Below the pieces are notes generated by a model. It searched no databases and was not told the origin of the DNA. It saw nothing but the letters and a program-made list of their open reading frames with translations. From contig JAGAQZ010000068.1 in assembly GCA_017622505.1 (NCBI GenBank), forward strand, positions 1 through 33,126: DNA of 33,126 bases, read 5' to 3'. Of this stretch, positions 2,740 through 18,079 are shown piece after piece (position 1 is the first letter of the stretch; every line of letters starts with the position of its first letter). Made by a program: the position numbers and the translations under genes. The stretch is from Lachnospiraceae bacterium (GTDB taxonomy: Bacteria; Bacillota; Clostridia; Lachnospirales; Lachnospiraceae).

Positions 2740-3525
2740 ATGAAAATGTTAAAAAAGAATTTAGCGCTGATTTTGTGTTTGACGCTTGTTGGTATGTTAA
2801 GCGGATGCGGTTCCCAGGCAAAAAGCGGACCTTCCAAAGCAATTAAGGAGTATTTTGATGCTTGCAATGCAATGGATATGGAAGCAATAGATAACGCATC
2901 CATTCCCGATGGCAAAGAAGGATATTATACTTCACAGTTGTTGAGTACGGATGATTACAGTTTCTATGAGAACTGGCGATCCACTATGGGCTTTTACAGA
3001 AGCAAGCTGGATGCCGCTGATTTCATAAAATTTAATCCTGAGTTTGTAATTTTTGATGATTACTCTTACGTATCAACAGGACCGAATGGTGAGTTGTTAA
3101 ATTACGACCGTGAAGAAATAACATTGGAAGAAGCATTGCCCGACTTTTCCGTAGATTATAAGATTGAGGAAATAGAACAGTTTGATGATTGTACTGCCTA
3201 TTTAAAAAGTGGGTTAAGTTTGATTGAAATAGAGGATATGGATAAAGTCGTTGCTTTAAGCGACGGAAGTTTTCTGGATGTTCAAGATATGTATGTTGCC
3301 AAACTTAAAGTTGAATGGTCATATGGAAACAACCTGTATGGATATAACAAAAGTTGGTGGAATGATGAAGAGTTTTGCAATTTTGTGCCTGCTTCTTACG
3401 AAGATACCATAAAAGAACATGCTGATTTAGATTATATTGTTTTTGTTTACAAATATAATGATGAGTGGTATGTATGTCCGGAAAATTTAAAAGCATCTAC
3501 ATATTTGTATGCTGCTGAATTTTAA
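2740..3525 (+). CDS. Lipoprotein of unknown function
   Basis: The 261-residue protein begins with a classic lipoprotein signal: a lysine-rich start, a hydrophobic core and the lipobox LSGC with the modified cysteine at about residue 23. It would be anchored on the outer face of the membrane. The mature part is acidic and aromatic-rich and has no motif I recognise; the opening AIKEYFDACNAMDMEAI looks like the first helix of an NTF2/DUF4878-like fold, which is common in Firmicutes lipoproteins (tentative). AAAGGAGA lies eight bases before this ATG. An in-frame ATG at 2680 would add 20 charged residues before the signal peptide and is rejected. The gene may be co-transcribed with the membrane protein upstream, and a strong hairpin follows it. 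Confidence 0.75.
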   Translation: MKMLKKNLALILCLTLVGMLSGCGSQAKSGPSKAIKEYFDACNAMDMEAIDNASIPDGKEGYYTSQLLSTDDYSFYENWRSTMGFYRSKLDAADFIKFNPEFVIFDDYSYVSTGPNGELLNYDREEITLEEALPDFSVDYKIEEIEQFDDCTAYLKSGLSLIEIEDMDKVVALSDGSFLDVQDMYVAKLKVEWSYGNNLYGYNKSWWNDEEFCNFVPASYEDTIKEHADLDYIVFVYKYNDEWYVCPENLKASTYLYAAEF

Positions 3526-3554
3526 TTATACTCATAATTAAAAAAATGATATGT

Positions 3555-3592
3555 CCCTCTTTATCAGTTCATCGGTAAAGGGGGATTATATT
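3555..3592. terminator. Bidirectional terminator between convergent genes
   Basis: CCCTCTTTATC (3555-3565) pairs with GGTAAAGGGGG (3574-3584) over 11 bp, including two G-T pairs, with an 8-nt loop. A T-rich tract follows on the plus strand. It separates the lipoprotein gene from the AbiEi-like gene, which runs the other way. Confidence 0.75.
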
Positions 3593-3602
3593 TTTATATT
3601 CA

Positions 3603-10204: not shown

Positions 10205-12166
10205 CTATTCCGAAGCTTCTGTACACCTTACCCACATAGCCGGCCTGATTCCACCTGTCGCTACCGTGGAATGTCTGCCCTCGTAGTCAATGTCTCCTTC
10301 TGCATCTACCACCACGGTTTTCTTCGCATCCGCACCCATATTACGAAGCCACCACCAGGTATTGTTGTCACGCTGGGCATGATTATAGCCGTCATTGATA
10401 TCCACGTTGGCACCATCTCTTGCCGCCGCCTGGGTCGCCTGGACATAACGGTCTTCCTCATTGGGGAAATACTGTTCCACCTCTTCCGCCGATAAAAGGA
10501 ACACATAGTCCTGAACCGTTCGTCCGCCCGCAGTTCCGTATTCCTCATTGTCAGAAGTGAAAACATCCGTCTCAATCAACAATTCTTTCTCGTAGTTATT
10601 GATATACTCTTCATAAAAGACTCCATTCAGCATTTCCCGGAGACTACAATTTGCCCAGCTCGTTTCCTCATAAACATCGTGGAATTCGCCCGGTGACAAA
10701 ACCGAAACACTGATTAACAACAGCTTATCGTCCTGTCTGTCCAATACATACCAAAAAATTCGCTCGTCACCGCTTTTTACATAATCGGTGTTCATCGTGC
10801 CAAGGGGGATAATGTCACCCACTTCAGCGTCGGCAAGCAGCTCAACCTCTTCCTTGTAATAAACTCCCGGCTGAATCAGCATTACGTACAATTCGCTGAT
10901 GATAAATCCGCAGAGAATCACTAACACAATGCTTCCCACGATTGCAAGCTCGCGCATACGCTTCTTCTTTTTCTGAAGCTCGAGTTTTTTATCTAAAGAC
11001 AGCTCTTCCTCCTGAATTTTCTTCCGGTCCATTGTTACAAGGCGAATTAACAATCTATGAATCAGGTGCAAGGGAATTGCCACGCCTATGGACAGAAGAA
11101 TTACCCAGATAAAAAGGGCAAGGCTGTCGCGCTCGTACTCGTAAGTTAAGAATACTTTAAACAGTTCGTGGATAATGTAAATTTCAAGGCTGATTTTACC
11201 AAGAAGCACAAGAAGGATATTTTTTACCCGCACCTTCATACCGATAAGAAGCAACATAAGAAGCCACGTTGCACAGGCGATGGTTTGCGCCAACAGCGTA
11301 ATTGCCTTGGCGCCGTAACCGGGGTGTCCCTCCCACTCCTGATAATAGCCAAACGTGCGAAGCACAATTTCTTCCAATCCAAAAGTCACAAGAAACGCCA
11401 CTATTGATACCGGCAACAGCCACTTATAGTGTTTCTTTAAGAAAGCAAGCACCTTGTCGTAGTACTTCGCCATAAACAATCCCGCCAGGAAGAAAATCGT
11501 GGTATTGTACCACCATTCGCCCATAAACCAAAGTCCGCCGTCCTTGCTTTGATCGTGTCCAAGCAACAGACTCACCGTAATCATCAGAACAACGATGATA
11601 CTCATAGCACCCAGGGCTTTTCCGGGCTTCTTTATAAACCGGTGCGTAAAATAAAACGCCAGATAGAGAATCAGAATCTCCACCAGAAACCAGGTATTCG
11701 TGTTGACCAGGCGGAATCCGAAAAGACACACCAGAGATTCAATCACACTGTTTACACTTCCGAAATACATCTCCACCAAAACCAGGTAAATCGCATTGGA
11801 AATGATAAAAGGAATCAGCACCGCCGGAATTCTTTTACGAAGAAAGGTCTTCAAGTAGTCGGGCTTGCTTTTGAGACTCTGCATCAAACCGAATCCCGAA
11901 CAGAAGAAGAAAATCGTGGTAAAAAGAATCCCCATGGAACTAAAAATCGTGATAGGCCCATGCCATTCATTTCCGTAATTGGTTATGTACTGGGATAAAT
12001 GGTGGAAAATAATCCCTATGGCCGCAAGCCCCTGAAGGATTTTACTTTGTTCCAAAGAAAGAAAATCCTCGTGAATGCTTCCTTTGGGGGCAATTTTAAT
12101 TTGTACCAGCATGATAATGAACACAATCGCCGGGAAAATGCATAATAATAAATACTCTATATTCAT
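10205..12166 (-). CDS. Acyltransferase family 3 membrane protein with C-terminal DUF6273-like domain
   Basis: The 653-residue protein joins two modules. Residues 1 to about 385 form the multi-helix acyltransferase-3 membrane domain, with the conserved histidine pair in GIIFHHLSQY (H55, H56), FFFCSGFGLM, and a late KISLEIYIIHELF segment. This family moves acyl groups onto sugars or wall polymers. After a basic, coiled linker and one more helix (about 408-430) comes an extracytoplasmic domain of about 220 residues. Its signature FWYVLDR...SWANCSLREMLN...DYVFLLS...WWWLRNMG...GGIRPAMWV matches DUF6273. The ATG at 12166 follows GAAAGG; one at 12184 has no site. The domain probably senses or binds the surface substrate; that is inference. 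Confidence 0.8.
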   Translation of the reverse strand: MNIEYLLLCIFPAIVFIIMLVQIKIAPKGSIHEDFLSLEQSKILQGLAAIGIIFHHLSQYITNYGNEWHGPITIFSSMGILFTTIFFFCSGFGLMQSLKSKPDYLKTFLRKRIPAVLIPFIISNAIYLVLVEMYFGSVNSVIESLVCLFGFRLVNTNTWFLVEILILYLAFYFTHRFIKKPGKALGAMSIIVVLMITVSLLLGHDQSKDGGLWFMGEWWYNTTIFFLAGLFMAKYYDKVLAFLKKHYKWLLPVSIVAFLVTFGLEEIVLRTFGYYQEWEGHPGYGAKAITLLAQTIACATWLLMLLLIGMKVRVKNILLVLLGKISLEIYIIHELFKVFLTYEYERDSLALFIWVILLSIGVAIPLHLIHRLLIRLVTMDRKKIQEEELSLDKKLELQKKKKRMRELAIVGSIVLVILCGFIISELYVMLIQPGVYYKEEVELLADAEVGDIIPLGTMNTDYVKSGDERIFWYVLDRQDDKLLLISVSVLSPGEFHDVYEETSWANCSLREMLNGVFYEEYINNYEKELLIETDVFTSDNEEYGTAGGRTVQDYVFLLSAEEVEQYFPNEEDRYVQATQAAARDGANVDINDGYNHAQRDNNTWWWLRNMGADAKKTVVVDAEGDIDYEGRHSTVATGGIRPAMWVRCTEASE

Positions 12167-12195
12167 GTTCCGTACCTTTCGCATGCGGTTTTAAA

Positions 12196-12248
12196 CAGAC
12201 TGCTACTTCTGTCGTTACGTAACACGTCGCGTCTGCTTGTTTACTCTA
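12196..12248 (-). promoter_or_regulatory. Palindromic leader sequence of the acyltransferase gene
   Basis: A hairpin can form from CAGAC and GTCTG arms, and its loop carries the perfect 10-bp palindrome GTTACGTAAC at 12215-12224. It lies 30 to 80 bases upstream of the ATG at 12166. It may be an operator or a structured leader; no known riboswitch class was recognised. Confidence 0.3.
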
Positions 12249-12342
12249 TGAAATTATCATACTATGAGTCTAGTTCAAACACTATCTCTTTTTTACGTTT
12301 TTTTATAACAATCTTCCCTATGCCCGATACATACGCTCAACG

Positions 12343-13068
12343 CTATTCTTCCTGCACCGCCCTGCCCTGCCTTTTCTCCATCTTCTTCCAGCTGATATAG
12401 CCGTACAAGTCATTTACAAGAAAAGAGATAAAACAAACCACCATCGAAATGTAACGAACGTCTTCCGTCGCCGCCAAAACCCAAAGCACAATCAAAACCA
12501 CATCATTCATACCATAAATCAAGGCAAAATAAGGACTTCTGCGGAATATCAGATACGCCGCCGCAAAACTTGTGGCAACCGAAATGGTGCTCGGCACCAA
12601 ATTCGCCGTCTTGAAGTACTCTAGTATAAAATAAAACACCGCCGTTACCACAGCCGTAAGCAGGCACATCAAAATCGATTCTTTTATGGTGATGTAATTT
12701 ACTTTTACTTCGGACCGATTCTTTTCGTACGGATTTCGCAACCAGGAAATGAGCGAAAAAACCGCCATTGGCAAGGTCATTCCAAGGTAGGTAATCATTT
12801 CGCCGTAATAGGCAAAGCCGTAAGATATGATTCCGTATAAAATGCTGAAAAGAATCATCAGCACCTGCCCTACAGGATTTCCCTTGGCACAGAAGATCAA
12901 CGACGTTACGCCGATGATTGATGCAATCAGTGTCATATAGTTGCTTCGGTCAAATAGCAAAAAAGACAGAAAAATCAGTATGACCGATCCGCTCCAAAGG
13001 GCGATCTCCTGCTTTTTAAAATAAGAGGACTTTTTATTATTCTTTTGTGATTTCGTTGTAGGATTCAT
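12343..13068 (-). CDS. pnuC: PnuC family nicotinamide riboside / vitamin transporter
   Basis: The 241-residue protein has a lysine-rich cytoplasmic start and about seven hydrophobic helices. Family features include GVTSLIFCAKGNPVGQ, the repeated short SYGFAYYGEM segment, and the C-terminal LVNDLYGYISWKKM, all typical of PnuC. These carriers take up nicotinamide riboside (PnuC) or, in sub-families, thiamine or riboflavin, by facilitated diffusion with metabolic trapping. The nearby NAD genes favour a nicotinamide precursor but do not prove it. AAGGAGA lies eight bases before the ATG at 13068; an ATG at 13092 would place that site inside the gene. A structured leader of about 125 nt precedes it. 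Confidence 0.85.
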   Translation of the reverse strand: MNPTTKSQKNNKKSSYFKKQEIALWSGSVILIFLSFLLFDRSNYMTLIASIIGVTSLIFCAKGNPVGQVLMILFSILYGIISYGFAYYGEMITYLGMTLPMAVFSLISWLRNPYEKNRSEVKVNYITIKESILMCLLTAVVTAVFYFILEYFKTANLVPSTISVATSFAAAYLIFRRSPYFALIYGMNDVVLIVLWVLAATEDVRYISMVVCFISFLVNDLYGYISWKKMEKRQGRAVQEE

Positions 13069-13092
13069 TGTGATATTCTCCTTTGGGTCCAT

Positions 13093-13217
13093 TGGTTATG
13101 GGAATGTTATTCTCTGCCTTATCATAAAAGGCATCCGCAAGTATATCTTCTAAGACCTAACGATATACCTACGAATGCCTCTGCATTCTCTACCCGGTGG
13201 CAGGATGTGTGTTCTTT
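13093..13217 (-). promoter_or_regulatory. Structured leader RNA of pnuC, candidate riboswitch
   Basis: An 18-bp stem (13179-13162 with 13147-13130; 5' arm GGCATTCGTAGGTATATC on the minus strand) pairs completely if three G-U pairs are allowed, with a 14-nt loop. Its 5' arm can instead close a 6-bp hairpin GAATGC/GCATTC (13188-13173), and its 3' arm competes with GCCTT/AAGGC. A motif GGyAGAGAAT occurs twice (13194-13185 and 13118-13109), each followed by a small GAAT..ATTC hairpin. Mutually exclusive structures upstream of a vitamin transporter suggest ligand control. TPP and FMN riboswitch cores were looked for and not found. Confidence 0.55.
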
Positions 13218-13223
13218 TGTTTA

Positions 13224-13252
13224 ATTATATTATGAATTTATTCATTTTTCAA
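13224..13252 (-). promoter_or_regulatory. pnuC promoter
   Basis: On the minus strand, TTGAAA (13252-13247) and TATAAT (13229-13224) are 17 bases apart. The spacer holds a perfect dyad ATGAAT-AA-ATTCAT that could bind a regulator. Confidence 0.7.
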
Positions 13253-13268
13253 TTTAATATCTTATCAC

Positions 13269-13296
13269 TCTTTGCATTATAATTTTTATGCAAAGA
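13269..13296. repeat. 9-bp inverted repeat between the pnuC and toxin-antitoxin promoters
   Basis: TCTTTGCAT (13269-13277) and ATGCAAAGA (13288-13296) are perfectly inverted around ten A/T bases. No gene reads through it in a way that would make it a terminator. Role unknown. Confidence 0.4.
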
Positions 13297-13370
13297 TTTT
13301 ATCTTTACCTTATGGAAAAATTATCATAAAATTTTCTTCATTTTTATTAGCTTTTTTTTTAATAAATGTG

Positions 13371-13376
13371 TATAAT
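13371..13376 (+). promoter_or_regulatory. -10 box of the type III toxin-antitoxin locus
   Basis: A consensus TATAAT lies ten bases before the first hairpin of the antitoxin RNA. The -35 region is only weakly recognisable (TTAGCT, 18-base spacing). Confidence 0.5.
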
Positions 13377-13382
13377 ATAAGT

Positions 13383-13542
13383 AAGAAGACTTGATGTCTT
13401 CTTTTACGAGACGTATTTCAGGAACGTCTGGCTAAAAATAACCTGACAATATTGCGAGGGGTTTCTCGATGTCACCCGGCTCAATATAAAATCGAAAAAT
13501 AGTTTACTAAAGATAGGAAGCAGAAATGCTTCCTATTTTTTT
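13383..13542 (+). ncRNA. Type III antitoxin RNA: two pseudoknot repeats
   Basis: The RNA opens with an 8-bp hairpin (AAGAAGAC/GTCTTCTT, 13383-13403). Two repeats with a 48-nt period follow. In repeat 1, AGACGT (13409-13414) pairs with ACGTCT (13424-13429), while TCAGG in its loop (13418-13422) pairs with CCTGA (13442-13446). In repeat 2, GGGT (13459-13462) pairs with ACCC (13474-13477), while TCGAT in its loop (13466-13470) pairs with ATCGA (13491-13495). Both long loops begin GGCT and are A-rich. This H-type pseudoknot plan is that of known type III antitoxins (ToxI, CptI). A competing CGAG/CTCG hairpin exists in repeat 2. A terminator ends the RNA just before the toxin gene. Confidence 0.8.
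13513..13542 (+). terminator. Terminator between antitoxin repeats and toxin gene
   Basis: ATAGGAAGC (13513-13521) pairs perfectly with GCTTCCTAT (13528-13536), 6-nt loop, followed by seven T. A leaky terminator at this exact place is the hallmark of type III systems: it keeps antitoxin RNA in excess over toxin mRNA. Confidence 0.85.
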
Positions 13543-13554
13543 ATAGGAGGACAA

Positions 13555-14073
13555 ATGGATAATATACAATTCTGTTATATTATTGAACAATATTACATAG
13601 ATCACCCAGATTTGATAAAAATTCTTGATGTGGACGATGTAACAAAACATAACACCAGAACTCATTTATGCTTAACCATAAAATATAAAAATAACAATAT
13701 ACTTATTCCCTTAAGAAAAAATCTAGGCCCCGCAAAAAGAAAATTCGGAACGGTCGGTTATCCTGTCCCTAGTGCCAGTAAACCAGAAGCAGGTTTAGAT
13801 TACAGATACATAATGATAATAAATGATACAAATTATTTGCGATTTGATATTCCCAGAATCAGTAATAAACAAATCTCTATCATCAAGGATAACTATACAA
13901 CAATAGAAAAAGAAGCCATTGACTACATAAATTCTTATACTCGCGTTGCAAATAAAGGACGTATTAATCTAAATGCACGTTTTCGAGAATCAAGTCTGAT
14001 TAACTTCCACAATGAATTAGAAATTAAATATGCGGGACAACCTAAGGCCTTACCATCAAGTCAAAAAAAGTAA
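13555..14073 (+). CDS. Type III toxin-antitoxin endoribonuclease (CptN/TenpN-like)
   Basis: The 172-residue protein shows the core of the ToxN/CptN/TenpN endoribonuclease group: HLCLTIKYKNNNILIPLRKN (37-56), then PSASKPEAGLDYRYIMIIND (72-91). In relatives these segments carry the strands and the active-site loop of a compact RNase that cuts A-rich mRNA and its own antitoxin RNA. Two upstream pseudoknot repeats and a terminator complete the system. AGGAGG lies four bases before the ATG. The gene is clearly more A+T-rich than its neighbours and abuts tRNA-Ser, which suggests horizontal acquisition. Exact placement in CptN or TenpN needs a profile search; CptIN was first described in Clostridia, which fits. 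Confidence 0.8.
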   Translation: MDNIQFCYIIEQYYIDHPDLIKILDVDDVTKHNTRTHLCLTIKYKNNNILIPLRKNLGPAKRKFGTVGYPVPSASKPEAGLDYRYIMIINDTNYLRFDIPRISNKQISIIKDNYTTIEKEAIDYINSYTRVANKGRINLNARFRESSLINFHNELEIKYAGQPKALPSSQKK

Positions 14074-14079
14074 ATATTA

Positions 14080-14110
14080 AAAAAGCGAAAGTCCTCTCGA
14101 ACTTTCGCTT
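14080..14110. terminator. Shared terminator of tRNA-Ser and the toxin gene
   Basis: AAGCGAAAGT (14083-14092) pairs with ACTTTCGCTT (14101-14110) over ten bases. On the minus strand six T follow at once, so it mainly serves tRNA-Ser, but it also closes the toxin transcript. Confidence 0.8.
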
Positions 14111-14118
14111 AATCTTCA

Positions 14119-14206
14119 CGGAGAAAGAGGGATTTGAACCCTCGCGCCGGTTGCCCGACCTACACCCTTAGCAGGGGCGCCTCTTCAGCCTCTTGAGTAT
14201 TTCTCC
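14119..14206 (-). tRNA. tRNA-Ser(GCU)
   Basis: The 88-nt sequence has the acceptor stem GGAGAAA/TTTCTCC with discriminator G, a long variable arm, the T arm GAGGGTTCAAATCCCTC, and anticodon loop CTGCTAA giving anticodon GCU (reads AGC/AGU). The 3' CCA is not encoded. A type III toxin-antitoxin locus lies directly beyond its 3' end. Confidence 0.95.
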
Positions 14207-14271
14207 TTAGCCTGAAACTACCTTACCAATATGTGTATGTTTCAAATAGCACGCCTTCCGACGCAAATGTT

Positions 14272-14300
14272 ATTATACAAGGTGGGGTGGCGTTTGTCAA
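14272..14300 (-). promoter_or_regulatory. tRNA-Ser promoter
   Basis: On the minus strand, consensus TTGACA (14300-14295) and TATAAT (14277-14272) are exactly 17 bases apart, about 65 bases before the mature tRNA. The rest of 14207-14403 shows no gene. Confidence 0.85.
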
Positions 14301-14403
14301 CTGTTTTTATTATATGCATCTTCTATCTGAAAATACCTGCTTAAACATATTCAAGCAACGACACCCTGCCTTATTATACTTTAGAATTAACTCCGACTTG
14401 TTA

Positions 14404-15054
14404 TTACCGTCTTCTGAGTCCTGAAATCACACCCCATAAAACAGTTGCCAAGCCTATTGCCATAATACCGCCTGCACCCAGTATTCCCTTTTTGGTTTCT
14501 TTTGTATCACAATTAATGATCATATAGGGACAAATATATTCTTTGGCTTCCTGCTCGCTAATGTTCCACATATAAGAAATATATTTCACAAGGCTCTCGT
14601 ACTCGGCCTCCTTCATCTTTCGAAGGTATCCGTCCACTTTGATGGTAGGTCTGGGGAAATCTACTTCGCCGGTATAATCATTCCACCATTTCATACTGTT
14701 TTGTACTGCAGCATCATAACTCTCAAATCCGTCTGCTGCTTTGACCATAACGCCCATATATTCTTCAATGTAAACTCCCTCTTCAGTAAATACCAAATTC
14801 GGAACCAAATAAGCGCGGGCTGCTACTTCGCCGGTCTTGTTGTTGTATCGATGGTAAAAGAAGGTTTCAATATAATCTAACTCTGTAGTAATATGTGTCC
14901 CATTTTCTAATACCGACCAGTCCGTAGTCTCGTAAATATTCACTGCCGTATTATTAATATATATCAGTTCTTTTACACCGGCTACAGCCAGACAAATACC
15001 CAATATCAGTGCAGCAGCACCAACAATCGTTAATTTATTGAATATTTTTAACAT
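14404..15054 (-). CDS. Two-helix membrane protein of unknown function
   Basis: The 216-residue protein has one hydrophobic helix at about residues 9-30 and another at about 193-212, ending in GLRRR. Between them lies an acidic, aromatic-rich domain of some 160 residues that would face outwards. It contains VDGYLRKMKEAEYESLVKY and a late CPYMIINC. I do not recognise the family; it is not an enzyme I can name. AGGAGA lies six bases before the ATG. It follows metF by 35 bases on the same strand, so co-transcription is possible, though a functional link is not evident. Confidence 0.65.
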   Translation of the reverse strand: MLKIFNKLTIVGAAALILGICLAVAGVKELIYINNTAVNIYETTDWSVLENGTHITTELDYIETFFYHRYNNKTGEVAARAYLVPNLVFTEEGVYIEEYMGVMVKAADGFESYDAAVQNSMKWWNDYTGEVDFPRPTIKVDGYLRKMKEAEYESLVKYISYMWNISEQEAKEYICPYMIINCDTKETKKGILGAGGIMAIGLATVLWGVISGLRRR

Positions 15055-15089
15055 ATCTTTCTCCTTCGTGAAATCCTTGCGTACCTTTC

Positions 15090-15959
15090 TTACTGACAGG
15101 AACGCAAAGATGCCACCGCATCACTTATCTTCTTCGCAACCTCGGGCTGGTTCATGGTATACAGATGCACGCCGTCCACACCCTGGCTCATCAAATCCAC
15201 CACCTGGTCAATTGCGTAAGCAATTCCGGCATCGCGAAGTGCTTCGGGAGAGTGCTCAAAGCGGTTCATCATTTTAACAAATTTTGCAGGAAGGCTGGCA
15301 CCGCAAGTGGTAACCATACGCTCAATCTGTGCCTTGTTTACAACCGGCATAATTCCGGCCTCGATAGGCACGTTAATGCCTGCAAGACGGGCCTTTTCCT
15401 GGAATTCATAAAACATATTATTGTCAAAGAAAAGCTGGGAAACCAGATGTTTGGCACCCGCATCTACCTTTCTTTTCAAATTTAAAATATCATCTATCAT
15501 ATTATCACTTTCGGGATGTCCTTCGGGATAGCATGCGCCGGAAATATGAAAATCTCCACGTTCCTTAATATAGGTCACCAACTCGTTGGCATGCATGAAA
15601 TCCGTCTGTCTCGGCAAATCGGGCACGATATCGCCACGAAGCGCCAAGATATTCTCAATTCCGTATTCCTTGATTAATTTCAGAACTTCTTCCACCGACT
15701 CCTTGCTGGAATTTACGCAGGTTAAGTGCATCATGGAAGGAATGTTGTACTGCTCCTGAATTGCCTTACAGATATCCGCAGTCAACACACTTGCTCCGCC
15801 ACCGCCGGCACCATAAGTTACACTGATAAAATCCGGCTTACACTCCGACAACGCGCCCAACTTTGAATAAATACTGTCAATGGAACTGGTTTTCTTCGGG
15901 GGAAATACCTCAAAAGAAAACACTGTTTTTTTCTGTTCAAAAATCTCTGAAATCTTCAT
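15090..15959 (-). CDS. metF: Methylenetetrahydrofolate reductase, MetF
   Basis: MetF reduces 5,10-methylene-THF to 5-methyl-THF with FAD, supplying the methyl group for methionine. The 289-residue TIM-barrel protein has the family start FSFEVFPPKK (catalytic glutamate near E17), FISVTYGAGG, HLTCVN, ILALRGD, ISGACYPEGHPES and the late MMNRFEHSP. AAGGAG lies eight bases before the ATG at 15959; extending the frame upstream adds basic residues without a site. A terminator of the preceding glgB operon sits 70 bases upstream, so metF has its own promoter there, although no clear one is visible. No SAM riboswitch fits in that space. Confidence 0.93.
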   Translation of the reverse strand: MKISEIFEQKKTVFSFEVFPPKKTSSIDSIYSKLGALSECKPDFISVTYGAGGGGASVLTADICKAIQEQYNIPSMMHLTCVNSSKESVEEVLKLIKEYGIENILALRGDIVPDLPRQTDFMHANELVTYIKERGDFHISGACYPEGHPESDNMIDDILNLKRKVDAGAKHLVSQLFFDNNMFYEFQEKARLAGINVPIEAGIMPVVNKAQIERMVTTCGASLPAKFVKMMNRFEHSPEALRDAGIAYAIDQVVDLMSQGVDGVHLYTMNQPEVAKKISDAVASLRSCQ

Positions 15960-16020
15960 TCTTTTACTCCTTTTACAATGGATAATCCACTGCATTTCCC
16001 GTTTTTGCGATAATTTGCAA

Positions 16021-16060
16021 AAAATTCTAAACGACTGTGCCCCCGTAAGAACACAGTCGT
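16021..16060 (-). terminator. Terminator of the glgB operon
   Basis: On the minus strand ACGACTGTG and CACAGTCGT form a perfect 9-bp stem with a 12-nt loop, followed by TTAGAATTTTTT. Confidence 0.8.
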
Positions 16061-16111
16061 AATTTGTAAGTTTAAAACAATTTCTATCCGAAACTACTGA
16101 CCATTATATCC

Positions 16112-18079
16112 TTAGAATACAAACAAAGCTGCACCATAAGCCGGTAAATTGAACTCTAAGTAGTAAGGCTTGCCGTCGCATTCGCCTGCCTGCGCAGTCA
16201 AAGTTTCGGGAATTGCACCGCCGTTACCGCCGAAGCGCTTGTCATCGCTGTTAAGAAGCAATTTATATTTCTTCTTTGCAGGAACGCCGACTCTGTAGTT
16301 TTCACGACGCATCGGTGTCATATTAAGCACTACGAGAATGCGGTTCTTGTTCTCTTTGCCCTTACGATAGTAGCTGTAAATACTTCTGTCACCGTCATCT
16401 GCATTGATCCATTCAAAACCGTCCCAGCTGTTATCAATCTGATACAGAGAAGGATATTTGCGATAAATTGTCAACAATTCCTTCATATATTCCAACATAC
16501 CACGGTTCAGATGGTTCTCAAGCAGATACCAGTCAAGCTCTCTTTCTTCGCTCCACTCTCTTTCCTGGGCAAATTCCTGGCCCATGAAAAGAAGCTTCTT
16601 GCCTTCATGTGTAAACATAAAAGTATAACCTACACGAAGGTTTGCGTACTTATCTACCTGATAGCCGGGCATTTTATTTACCATAGAACACTTCAGGTGA
16701 ACCACTTCGTCATGGGACAAAGGCATAATGTAATTCTCACTTGAGTTGTAGCTCATGGCAAAGGTTAACTTATTGTGGTTGCCTTTTCTGAAATAAGGGT
16801 CAAGCTTCATATATTCACAGAAGTCATGCATCCAACCCATATTCCACTTAAAAGTAAATCCAAGGCCATCATCTTCCGGCGCACCGGTTACCTTAGGCCA
16901 TGCTGTGGATTCTTCCGCGATCATACATACGCCGGGATATGTACCGCGCACTACGGAATTCAAATGCTTGAAGAACTCAATTGCTTCAAGGTTCTGGTTT
17001 CCGCCGTACTTGTTGGCTACCCACTGGCCGTCCTGCTTACCGTAATCAAGGTAAAGCATAGATGCAACCGCGTCTACGCGAAGACCGTCAATGTGGAATT
17101 CCTTAATCCAGAACAATGCGTTTGCAATAAGGAAGTTACGCACTTCGTTTTTACCATAGTTAAAAATCTTGGTACCCCAGTCAGGATGCTCGCCTAAACG
17201 GGGATCAGGATGCTCAAATAAACAGGTTCCGTCAAATTCTGCCAAACCATGGGCATCTCTGGGGAAGTGTGCAGGTACCCAGTCAAGGATAACACCGATT
17301 TTATTCTTATGAAGAGTGTTTACCAGATACTGGAAGTCTTCCGGTGTACCGTATCTTGAAGTAGGTGCATAGTATCCGGTTACCTGATAACCCCAGGAAC
17401 CATCAAAAGGATGCTCTGCGATACCCATCAATTCCACGTGGGTATATTTCATTTCTTTCAAATATTCTACGATTCTGTCAGCAAACTCCCTGTAGTTGTA
17501 GAAGCCTTCTTCGTCCTCTCTGGGATGACGCATCCAAGAACCGATGTGGCATTCATAAATTGCCATAGGCTCTTCAAAAACATTTTTAGCGTCCCTGTCT
17601 TCCATCCAGGTCTTATCGCTCCACTTGAAGCTGTTAATGTCCGCAACCTTAGATGCATTTCCGGGTCTCATTTCCGCATGATTTCCGAAGGGATCGGCCT
17701 TGTAAAGCTTCTTGCCTTCCGGTGTGATGATGAGATACTTGTACATATCTCCGACTTTTGCTTCTTTAATAAAAGCTGCAAAAACGCCGCCTTCTCCTAC
17801 TTCACCCATAGGATTTGCGTTCTCGTCCCAACCGTTAAAAGAACCAATTACGTGAACACTTACTGCGTTCGGCGCCCATACACCGAAGTGAATGCCCGCC
17901 ACGCCGTCTTCTACGGAAGGGTGTGCGCCCAATTTCTTATAAATATCATAGTGTGTACCCTGTCCAAATAAGTAGCAGTCTGCATCTGAAATAAAAACTC
18001 TTTCCCCCTGTACAGCTGCTTTTTTTGCCTTGGTACTTTCAGCTTTGGTGACCTTTGTAGTCTTTGCCTTTTCTGCCAT
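16112..18079 (-). CDS. glgB: 1,4-alpha-glucan branching enzyme, GlgB
   Basis: GlgB cuts alpha-1,4-glucan chains and rejoins them as alpha-1,6 branches during glycogen synthesis. The 655 residues hold a CBM48-type N domain (GIHFGVWAPNAVSVHVIGSFNGW, 62-84) and the GH13 barrel. Catalytic residues fit the family spacing: nucleophile D336 (DGLRVDA), acid/base E389 (IAEEST) and D457 (LSHDEV). DWVPAHF near 266 is the first conserved GH13 region. The first 25 residues are a Lys/Ala/Thr-rich tail not needed for the fold. GGGGGAA precedes the ATG. The gene starts 16 bases after the stop of the large TPR protein gene, so both form an operon. Confidence 0.95.
   Translation of the reverse strand: MAEKAKTTKVTKAESTKAKKAAVQGERVFISDADCYLFGQGTHYDIYKKLGAHPSVEDGVAGIHFGVWAPNAVSVHVIGSFNGWDENANPMGEVGEGGVFAAFIKEAKVGDMYKYLIITPEGKKLYKADPFGNHAEMRPGNASKVADINSFKWSDKTWMEDRDAKNVFEEPMAIYECHIGSWMRHPREDEEGFYNYREFADRIVEYLKEMKYTHVELMGIAEHPFDGSWGYQVTGYYAPTSRYGTPEDFQYLVNTLHKNKIGVILDWVPAHFPRDAHGLAEFDGTCLFEHPDPRLGEHPDWGTKIFNYGKNEVRNFLIANALFWIKEFHIDGLRVDAVASMLYLDYGKQDGQWVANKYGGNQNLEAIEFFKHLNSVVRGTYPGVCMIAEESTAWPKVTGAPEDDGLGFTFKWNMGWMHDFCEYMKLDPYFRKGNHNKLTFAMSYNSSENYIMPLSHDEVVHLKCSMVNKMPGYQVDKYANLRVGYTFMFTHEGKKLLFMGQEFAQEREWSEERELDWYLLENHLNRGMLEYMKELLTIYRKYPSLYQIDNSWDGFEWINADDGDRSIYSYYRKGKENKNRILVVLNMTPMRRENYRVGVPAKKKYKLLLNSDDKRFGGNGGAIPETLTAQAGECDGKPYYLEFNLPAYGAALFVF

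What the first reader, a model, noticed from the sequence alone, without database searches (positions are those of the whole stretch)
13371..14110. Complete type III toxin-antitoxin locus beside tRNA-Ser
Seen: a TATAAT box, a 5' hairpin, two 48-nt RNA repeats, a strong terminator, AGGAGG and a 172-residue ORF with IPLRKN and GLDY motifs. Known: this order (repeats, leaky terminator, RNase gene) defines type III systems, and CptIN was described in Clostridia. Inferred: the locus was gained by transfer, as it is A+T-rich and abuts the 3' end of tRNA-Ser. Only a few type III families are known, so a divergent member matters, not least as a possible phage-defence system.
Basis: partly seen in the sequence, partly recalled or inferred. 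Interest (0 to 1): 0.85.

Follow-up and report, generated by a model that had tools for sequence, protein, structure and literature searches.

The report
Two-pseudoknot TenpIN toxin-antitoxin locus
A gut bacterium carries, beside a tRNA gene, a small horizontally acquired module that appears to encode an RNA-cutting toxin and the RNA that restrains it; the restraining RNA is made of two knotted units with different sequences rather than simple repeats, which may matter for how such modules assemble and persist.

Summary
In detail: promoter box, 5' hairpin, two units 48 nt apart, terminator, AGGAGG, 172-aa ORF, tRNA-Ser. The ORF matches the TenpIN family (NCBIfam NF047358, E 9.5e-19, 68 bits, below the curated 90), not CptIN. 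The "repeats" are only about half identical and two repeat finders miss them, yet each can fold as the same kind of H-type pseudoknot with different stems: loop stem TCAGG/CCTGA in unit 1, TCGAT/ATCGA in unit 2. Relatives show compensatory changes. In a clade of eight loci (window included) each unit is conserved as itself (seven loci compared: 89% and 92% identity, 49% between units). The locus is an insertion: a same-genus genome has the empty site. Four clade relatives lie on predicted phage contigs, one apparently inside a group I intron, one beside Kiwa-like genes. Structure prediction was off, so the fold rests on profile comparison. Toxicity, processing and phage defence are inferred. 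Verdict: a real, divergent TenpIN locus with an unusual two-unit antitoxin.

The parts
13371..13376 (+). -10 box TATAAT of the operon promoter
   Evidence: sequence; TGTGTATAATATAAGTA matched with few changes in 6 of 8 clade loci in alignment A6, weaker in L084 and L085; not listed by the promoter scan
13383..13403 (+). 5' leader hairpin
   Evidence: a hairpin folds here in 8 of 8 clade loci although the letters differ
13403..13450 (+). antitoxin unit 1 (R1): pseudoknot, S1 13409-13414/13424-13429 (AGACGT/ACGTCT), S2 13418-13422/13442-13446 (TCAGG/CCTGA)
13451..13498 (+). antitoxin unit 2 (R2): pseudoknot, S1 13459-13462/13474-13477 (GGGT/ACCC), S2 13466-13470/13491-13495 (TCGAT/ATCGA)
13509..13542 (+). 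intrinsic terminator between antitoxin and toxin
   Evidence: arms 93% complementary; fold (and 6 of 6 clade loci folded); conserved in A6; not listed by the pattern scan
13545..13550 (+). ribosome binding site AGGAGG
   Evidence: sequence
13555..14073 (+). TenpN-type toxin, 172 aa
   Evidence: NCBIfam NF047358 E 9.5e-19; purifying selection; 37-protein alignment
14083..14110 (-). terminator of tRNA-Ser, downstream of the toxin
   Evidence: a 23-bp copy of window 14079-14101 lies left of the locus in L001/L034
14119..14206 (-). tRNA-Ser (GCT), neighbour and integration hotspot
13234..14072 (.). stretch absent from the homologous site of same-genus genome G401 (insertion)
   Evidence: G401 matches window 12368-13233 and 14073-14313, with 23 bp between the two in G401

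Best explanation
A horizontally acquired type III toxin-antitoxin locus of the TenpIN family. SHOWN by sequence: one promoter box, a leader hairpin, two pseudoknot-forming antitoxin units, a terminator and a TenpN-like ORF, kept together in relatives. INFERRED: most transcripts stop at the terminator and give antitoxin RNA; read-through makes toxin. The toxin, an endoribonuclease, cuts the precursor at the unit junctions and is held inactive by the released pseudoknots. With exactly two conserved, non-identical units, the likely product is a small closed complex holding one R1 and one R2 (by analogy with the 2:2 CptIN ring, but asymmetric). When transcription stops, for instance on phage infection, antitoxin decays first and the freed toxin cuts RNA, halting growth and phage (abortive infection).
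For: NF047358 E 9.5e-19 for P0001; 7 of 7 members of A3 match it. Gene order and RNA conserved in 8 clade loci. S2 on a MAFFT alignment of 27 units (25 distinct rows): 93.6% of 125 cells pair, at most 44.0% when slid by 1-3 columns; 25 cells changed on both sides against 7.2 +/- 2.5 shuffled. TenpN profile A4 against ToxN alignment A7: probability 86.7%, E 4.3e-6, aligning RPY...IPxR with the ToxN R-Y...PLSS region. 2 of 29 A4 members match Pfam ToxN (best 6.6e-4) and 2 match PADLOC AbiQ (best 3.5e-4). R35, P52 and R54 invariant in 37 of 37 proteins. Purifying selection. Empty site. Relatives on predicted phage contigs. PMC5377504 (passages read): Photorhabdus TenpIN aborts phage PhiM1.
Against: P0001 scores below the TenpIN curated cut-off (68 against 90) and hits nothing in Pfam or PADLOC. 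The subclade profile A3 alone barely matches ToxN (probability 6.6). The PDB profile search gave ToxN only at E 0.46, third in rank. The position aligned with ToxN Ser53 is Lys here (Ser/Thr in 29 of 37 TenpN-like proteins). No ordinary tandem repeat. In one search one measure (further pair types: 5 observed, 6.3 shuffled) does not favour the structure, and another (pairs changed on both sides, 4) was reached by 30 of 500 shuffles; the units in that alignment were cut out by me around the stems. The PhiM1 paper also reports two other phages not inhibited by Photorhabdus TenpIN.
Confidence: 0.85

Rival explanations
1. Same TenpIN locus, but the two units are interchangeable: they drifted apart under a structural constraint only, and the toxin reads just shape and tails. 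No asymmetric complex, no division of labour.
For: Units with different S2 stems recur across the family: 11 of the 33 loci with a detected pair (44 surveyed); at least 5 changes of the label forced on the tree. In 7 further loci S1 alone differs. A single CptI repeat is fully antitoxic (PMC4627078, passages read).
Against: In the window clade each unit is conserved as itself (7 loci: R1-R1 0.89, R2-R2 0.92, between 0.49) although dS exceeds 2 between the window and L019, L031 and L084. S2 is the same in R1 of 8 of 8 loci and in R2 of 7 of 8; the eighth, L086, changed both strands.
Confidence: 0.45
2. The units diverged because identical direct repeats are lost by slippage or recombination; non-identity is selected to keep the array, and hence the host, safe.
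For: Longest run shared by the two units in 7 clade loci is 5-8 nt, against 9-25 in five sister loci; unit divergence arose repeatedly.
Against: Other TenpIN loci keep two near-identical units (for example L004, L007, L012, L064), and some seem to have one (L003, L062, by eye).
Confidence: 0.3
3. The locus is a decayed, inactive remnant in this genome.
For: Sits alone beside a tRNA, with no integrase among the ten neighbouring ORFs searched; 2 of 31 same-genus genomes hold the clade.
Against: Intact ORF, dN/dS about 0.14 against L001, intact pairing in both units and an intact terminator.
Confidence: 0.06
4. The upstream RNA is a cis-regulatory leader (riboswitch or attenuator) of a gene that is not a toxin.
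For: No RNA family matches it at gathering score, so no known antitoxin model supports it either.
Against: Homology to an annotated TenpIN toxin family and the same two-unit architecture in unrelated contexts.
Confidence: 0.04

Closest known systems
TenpIN family (type III toxin-antitoxin; NCBIfam NF047358; type system of Photorhabdus luminescens)
   Same: Toxin homology over residues 25-155; operon order; pseudoknot units upstream of a terminator; R35, P52, R54
   Different: Below the curated cut-off; about six extra residues at 25-31 and about three near 60-62 against most TenpN in alignment A2; Lys at position 55; two units only about half identical
CptIN (Eubacterium rectale; PDB 4RMO per PMC4627078)
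   Same: Type III order; about 45-48 nt units; weakly related toxin N-terminus (TenpN profile against L030, probability 66.3)
   Different: Toxin is not CptN (NF047359 not listed for P0001 up to E 10; it scores 175.8 bits on the CptN control L030); antitoxin sequence unlike by eye; the two units of L030 are identical by eye
ToxIN / AbiQ (PF13958)
   Same: Distant profile relation of the toxins; same order
   Different: No PF13958 match for P0001; invariant Arg where ToxN has Thr52 (inferred mapping); units longer than the 34-36 nt of ToxI and antiQ (PMC5086642)

Membership tests
TenpIN | toxin groups with TenpN by sequence | tested here: met
   NF047358 E 9.5e-19, the only NCBIfam family listed; but 68 bits is under the curated 90, so a divergent member
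TenpIN | toxin gene preceded by an intrinsic terminator, preceded by antitoxin units (criteria in PMC5086642, named sections read) | tested here: met
   13509-13542 and two units
TenpIN | tandem array of sequence repeats | tested here: inconclusive
   not detectable as repeats; met as structural repeats with compensatory changes
TenpIN | antitoxin units form pseudoknots | tested here: met
   predicted from pairing, not probed
TenpIN | toxin is an endoribonuclease with the ToxN/Kid fold | tested here: inconclusive
   profile comparison 86.7% for the wider family, 6.6% for the subclade; PDB E 0.46; fold prediction unavailable
TenpIN | toxicity neutralised by the RNA in trans; processing to unit size | not testable with these tools
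   needs bench work
CptIN | toxin matches CptN | tested here: not met
   NF047359 not listed for P0001 at E up to 10; control L030 scores 175.8 bits
ToxIN | toxin matches PF13958 | tested here: not met
   0 Pfam families for P0001 at E up to 10 (HMMER's filters drop most matches above about 0.1)

The most novel reading that the evidence does not exclude
An antitoxin with two specialised, non-interchangeable pseudoknots: one toxin complex needs one R1 and one R2, making an asymmetric type III ring. The clade spreads as a bare module of about 0.7 kb carried by phages (in one case as cargo of a group I intron) and dropped at tRNA attachment sites, with an active site in which the usual Ser/Thr is Lys.
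Probability: 0.25. Interest if true: 0.75.

Novelty: new variant of a known kind. Interest (0 to 1): 0.52.

Why it matters
The review read here says repeat length and sequence are usually quite conserved within toxin groups (PMC5086642, the paper's section 7). A clade whose two units differ in both stems yet are each conserved separately makes a clear question testable: does a type III toxin need two kinds of RNA partner, or only a shape? It also shows that tandem-repeat searches, used to find or verify type III loci in two papers seen here (PMC8860590; PMC12804078; passages), would miss this array. My PDB profile search found no solved TenpN, so this compact two-unit system is a reasonable structural target.

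Tried and rejected
Rejected: CptIN membership. Rejected: a phage origin from record MT835727.1 (L031), which is labelled a bacteriophage but whose ORFs read by eye as chromosomal genes (PyrK, PyrD, Hsp33 and cold-shock-like; names recalled). No useful result: Rfam on the window beyond two tRNAs and on 13200-13600 (nothing near gathering score); PADLOC for P0001; ungapped and tandem repeat finders; viral contigs with P0001 alone; PDB with P0001. I looked for the group I intron signature (both P7 strands) in 13 of the 17 viral loci and found both in none, one strand in two. L083 resembles L084 in its flanks, but Rfam gave no intron there at E up to 0.5.

Rows dropped: from tree and survey, distant homologues L022, L023, L025, L026, L028, L076, CptN control L030, broken or partial ORFs L011, L020, L021, L024, L027, L029, L054, L066, L067, the viral loci L116-L132, and repeat fetches of loci already held. 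L072 fell out of the tree only. L034 is the same locus as L001. L078 and L081 were not examined. L031 was left out of alignment A5 because its units equal those of L019.

Full report
CHECK. The ORF is under purifying selection: against the 90% relative L001, dN 0.054 and dS 0.375, with 30 of 46 base changes in the first 160 codons at third positions. The locus (13311-14073) has 30.7% G+C in a window of 41.6%, in the lowest 1.4% of equal-length stretches. The two RNA units lie 48 nt apart (GAG to GAG) but are about half identical; the repeat finder and Tandem Repeats Finder list nothing. They are nevertheless related: alignment score reached by 0 of 2000 shuffles, and two pseudoknots as good by 0 of 1000 dinucleotide shuffles of 13401-13503, with size limits set after seeing the units.

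FAMILY. P0001 matches one NCBIfam model, TenpIN NF047358 (E 9.5e-19, 68 bits, cut-off 90), one PHROG of unknown function (2.9e-13), and no Pfam or PADLOC model. All 7 members of the close alignment A3 match TenpIN. The CptN model finds a CptIN control (L030, 175.8 bits) whose repeat matches by eye the CptI primer printed in PMC4627078 (passages read), but is not listed for P0001. The TenpIN model matches 28 of 397 same-family genomes at E 0.001 or better (one of the 28, L030, is CptIN), over cut-off in 14; the family is Lachnospiraceae by the record title of L001. Searches with close alignments hit 16 of 391 genomes of the class (A1), 16 of 392 of the order (A3) and 2 of 398 of the phylum (A3), the window's own included each time. 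In the genus 3 of 31 genomes match P0001: the window's, G410 at 90%, and G402 at 27%, whose locus L035 looks like ordinary TenpIN. Plasmid records: 13 matches, all under 60% identity.

TOXIN. In an alignment of 37 TenpN-like proteins R35, P52 and R54 never vary. Profile comparison with 14 ToxN proteins gives probability 86.7% (E 4.3e-6) and aligns these with the ToxN active-site region. Published ToxN active-site residues are Tyr29, Lys33, Thr52, Ser53 and Lys55 (PMC5086642, the paper's section 4), with Ala49-Pro50-Leu51 before them (PMC8860590, passages). On that mapping, which is inference, TenpN-like proteins have an invariant Arg in place of Thr52, and position 55 (Ser53 equivalent) is Ser/Thr in 29 of 37, Lys in the window clade, Asn in L017, L052 and L053, and His in L060. 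The close clade alone compares poorly with ToxN (6.6%), and the PDB search gave ToxN only at E 0.46.

ANTITOXIN. Each unit has GAG, stem S1, a loop, the S1 partner, GGCT plus an A-rich stretch, then a strand pairing with the loop (S2): an H-type pseudoknot. Unit 1: S1 AGACGT/ACGTCT, S2 TCAGG/CCTGA. Unit 2: S1 GGGT/ACCC, S2 TCGAT/ATCGA. A MAFFT alignment, blind to structure, of 27 units from 14 loci that I had cut out around the stems (A5) gives S2 pairing in 93.6% of 125 cells, at most 44.0% when slid, and 25 cells changed on both sides against 7.2 +/- 2.5 in shuffles. Against: pairs changed on both sides (4) were reached by 30 of 500 shuffles, and further pair types (5) fell below the shuffled mean (6.3). 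S1 has two registers, six pairs in unit 1 and four in unit 2, so S1 in the unit-2 register scores lower (83.0% of cells). L086 unit 2 has TTGCT/AGCAA, a double change keeping the helix.

TWO UNITS, EACH CONSERVED. Eight loci (window, L001, L019, L031, L083-L086) form a clade supported 100/99 in a 43-protein tree. In seven of them (L031 has the same units as L019) unit 1 against unit 1 averages 0.89 identity (minimum 0.76), unit 2 against unit 2 0.92 (0.80), and unit 1 against unit 2 0.49 (maximum 0.58); within one locus the two units share no run longer than 8 nt. Six sister loci have within-locus identity 0.74-0.91. dS between window and L019, L031 and L084 exceeds 2, could not be computed for L083 and L086, and was not computed for L085. 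I infer that each unit is under its own constraint. In a survey of 44 TenpIN-like loci a unit pair was detected in 33; S2 differs in 13, of which L032 and L053 differ only in stem length, leaving 11; S1 alone differs in 7 more. The survey required 50% identity and reported no pair for L084-L086, L013 and L071, which by eye also carry differing S2 stems. The different-S2 label (16 proteins, five of them labelled by eye) needs 7 changes on the tree, at least 5 forced; it is also clustered (0 of 500 shuffles as low).

TRANSFER. In same-genus genome G401 the flanks of the locus (window 12368-13233 and 14073-14313) lie 23 bp apart: the empty site. In G404 a tyrosine integrase (PF00589, 2.1e-18) ends beside the same tRNA-Ser 3' end, and a second copy of window 14074-14140 lies about 7 kb away, so this tRNA is an integration hotspot. 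In L001/L034 a 23-bp copy of the tRNA terminator lies directly left of the locus. Within the part of the window printed (11500-16500), L019, L031, L083 and L086 match only the module itself, from 13311-13355 to 14007-14016.

PHAGE LINK. Viral contigs gave four clade members. In L083 the piece before the module matches a tape-measure PHROG (phrog_4211, 6.2e-15) and an HNH/homing endonuclease lies nearby (phrog_559, 7.4e-39); the long ORF after it looks tape-measure-like by eye but gave no PHROG match. In L084 the piece before gave no PHROG match, the piece after matches phage structural and tail proteins (phrog_215, 2.6e-25; phrog_341, 1.8e-16); that the two are one interrupted tape-measure gene is my reading by eye. 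In L084 Rfam finds both halves of a group I intron around the module: 2243-2575 (18.9 bits, E 0.051) and 3386-3594 (33.1 bits, E 2.9e-6), both below gathering (50), holding the two P7 strands. L086 lies next to KwaA-like (1.9e-15) and KwaB-like (2.3e-6) genes and an NsnB-like ATPase (7.8e-74). Carriage by mobile elements and in a defence neighbourhood fits, but does not show, phage defence. PMC5377504 (passages) reports that Photorhabdus TenpIN aborts PhiM1 but not two other phages tested.

MECHANISM. Shown: architecture, homology, pairing, conservation, insertion. Inferred: terminator read-through ratio, RNase activity, processing at unit junctions, inhibition by bound pseudoknots, release on antitoxin decay. 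Exactly two conserved units suggest a 2:2 complex as in CptIN (PMC4627078, passages), here possibly with one of each unit. Rivals are interchangeable units, and divergence selected against repeat loss.

LITERATURE LIMITS. Paper searches of the open PMC library showed, among the titles and abstract starts listed (searches list only part of what they found), none on unlike antitoxin units or intron-borne type III loci. The founding classification paper (Blower 2012, recalled) did not appear in these listings and was not read, and most subscription papers are not held. I make no claim of first report.

Noticed in passing
L084 2243-3594 (IMGVR_UViG_2854395284_000001): A TenpIN module of the window clade appears to be cargo of a group I intron, between two ORF pieces that read by eye as one phage tail gene; both intron halves match RF00028 below gathering and both P7 strands are present.
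   Followed up: partly
L083 544-6477 (IMGVR_UViG_3300031555_001472): TenpIN beside a tape-measure piece (phrog_4211) and a homing endonuclease; intron-like letters near 1940-2250 by eye but no Rfam match at E up to 0.5.
   Followed up: partly
L086 571-6061 (IMGVR_UViG_2531839014_000003): TenpIN beside KwaA/KwaB-like genes and an NsnB-like ATPase: a small defence island on a predicted viral contig.
   Followed up: partly
window 13119-13203: A short element 93-96% identical in G404, G410 and G401 (6 of 31 same-genus genomes match some of it), more conserved than the NMN transporter gene beside it (76% in G401); no Rfam family above gathering. In L001 it is present while that gene gave no match. 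Possible unknown RNA.
   Followed up: partly
G000:C93:1956-2453 (L092): The window's own genome also holds a ToxN-family protein (PF13958, 150.4 bits) preceded by what looks by eye like a single short RNA unit.
   Followed up: no
L022, L023, L025, L026 upstream regions: Distant TenpN homologues (L022: 49.8 bits) share a quite different upstream RNA, with unlike blocks rather than repeats by eye; perhaps a separate type III group.
   Followed up: no
L003, L062 upstream regions: TenpIN loci that by eye have only one antitoxin unit, against the usual tandem-array criterion.
   Followed up: no
L031 (MT835727.1): A record labelled Bacteriophage sp. reads by eye as bacterial chromosome, and about 1.96 kb of it matches L019, on a 2.5-Mb contig of G341, at 97%.
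   Followed up: yes
L118, L120, L122, L125 (viral contigs): Further TenpIN-like loci whose two units seem by eye to have different S2 stems.
   Followed up: no
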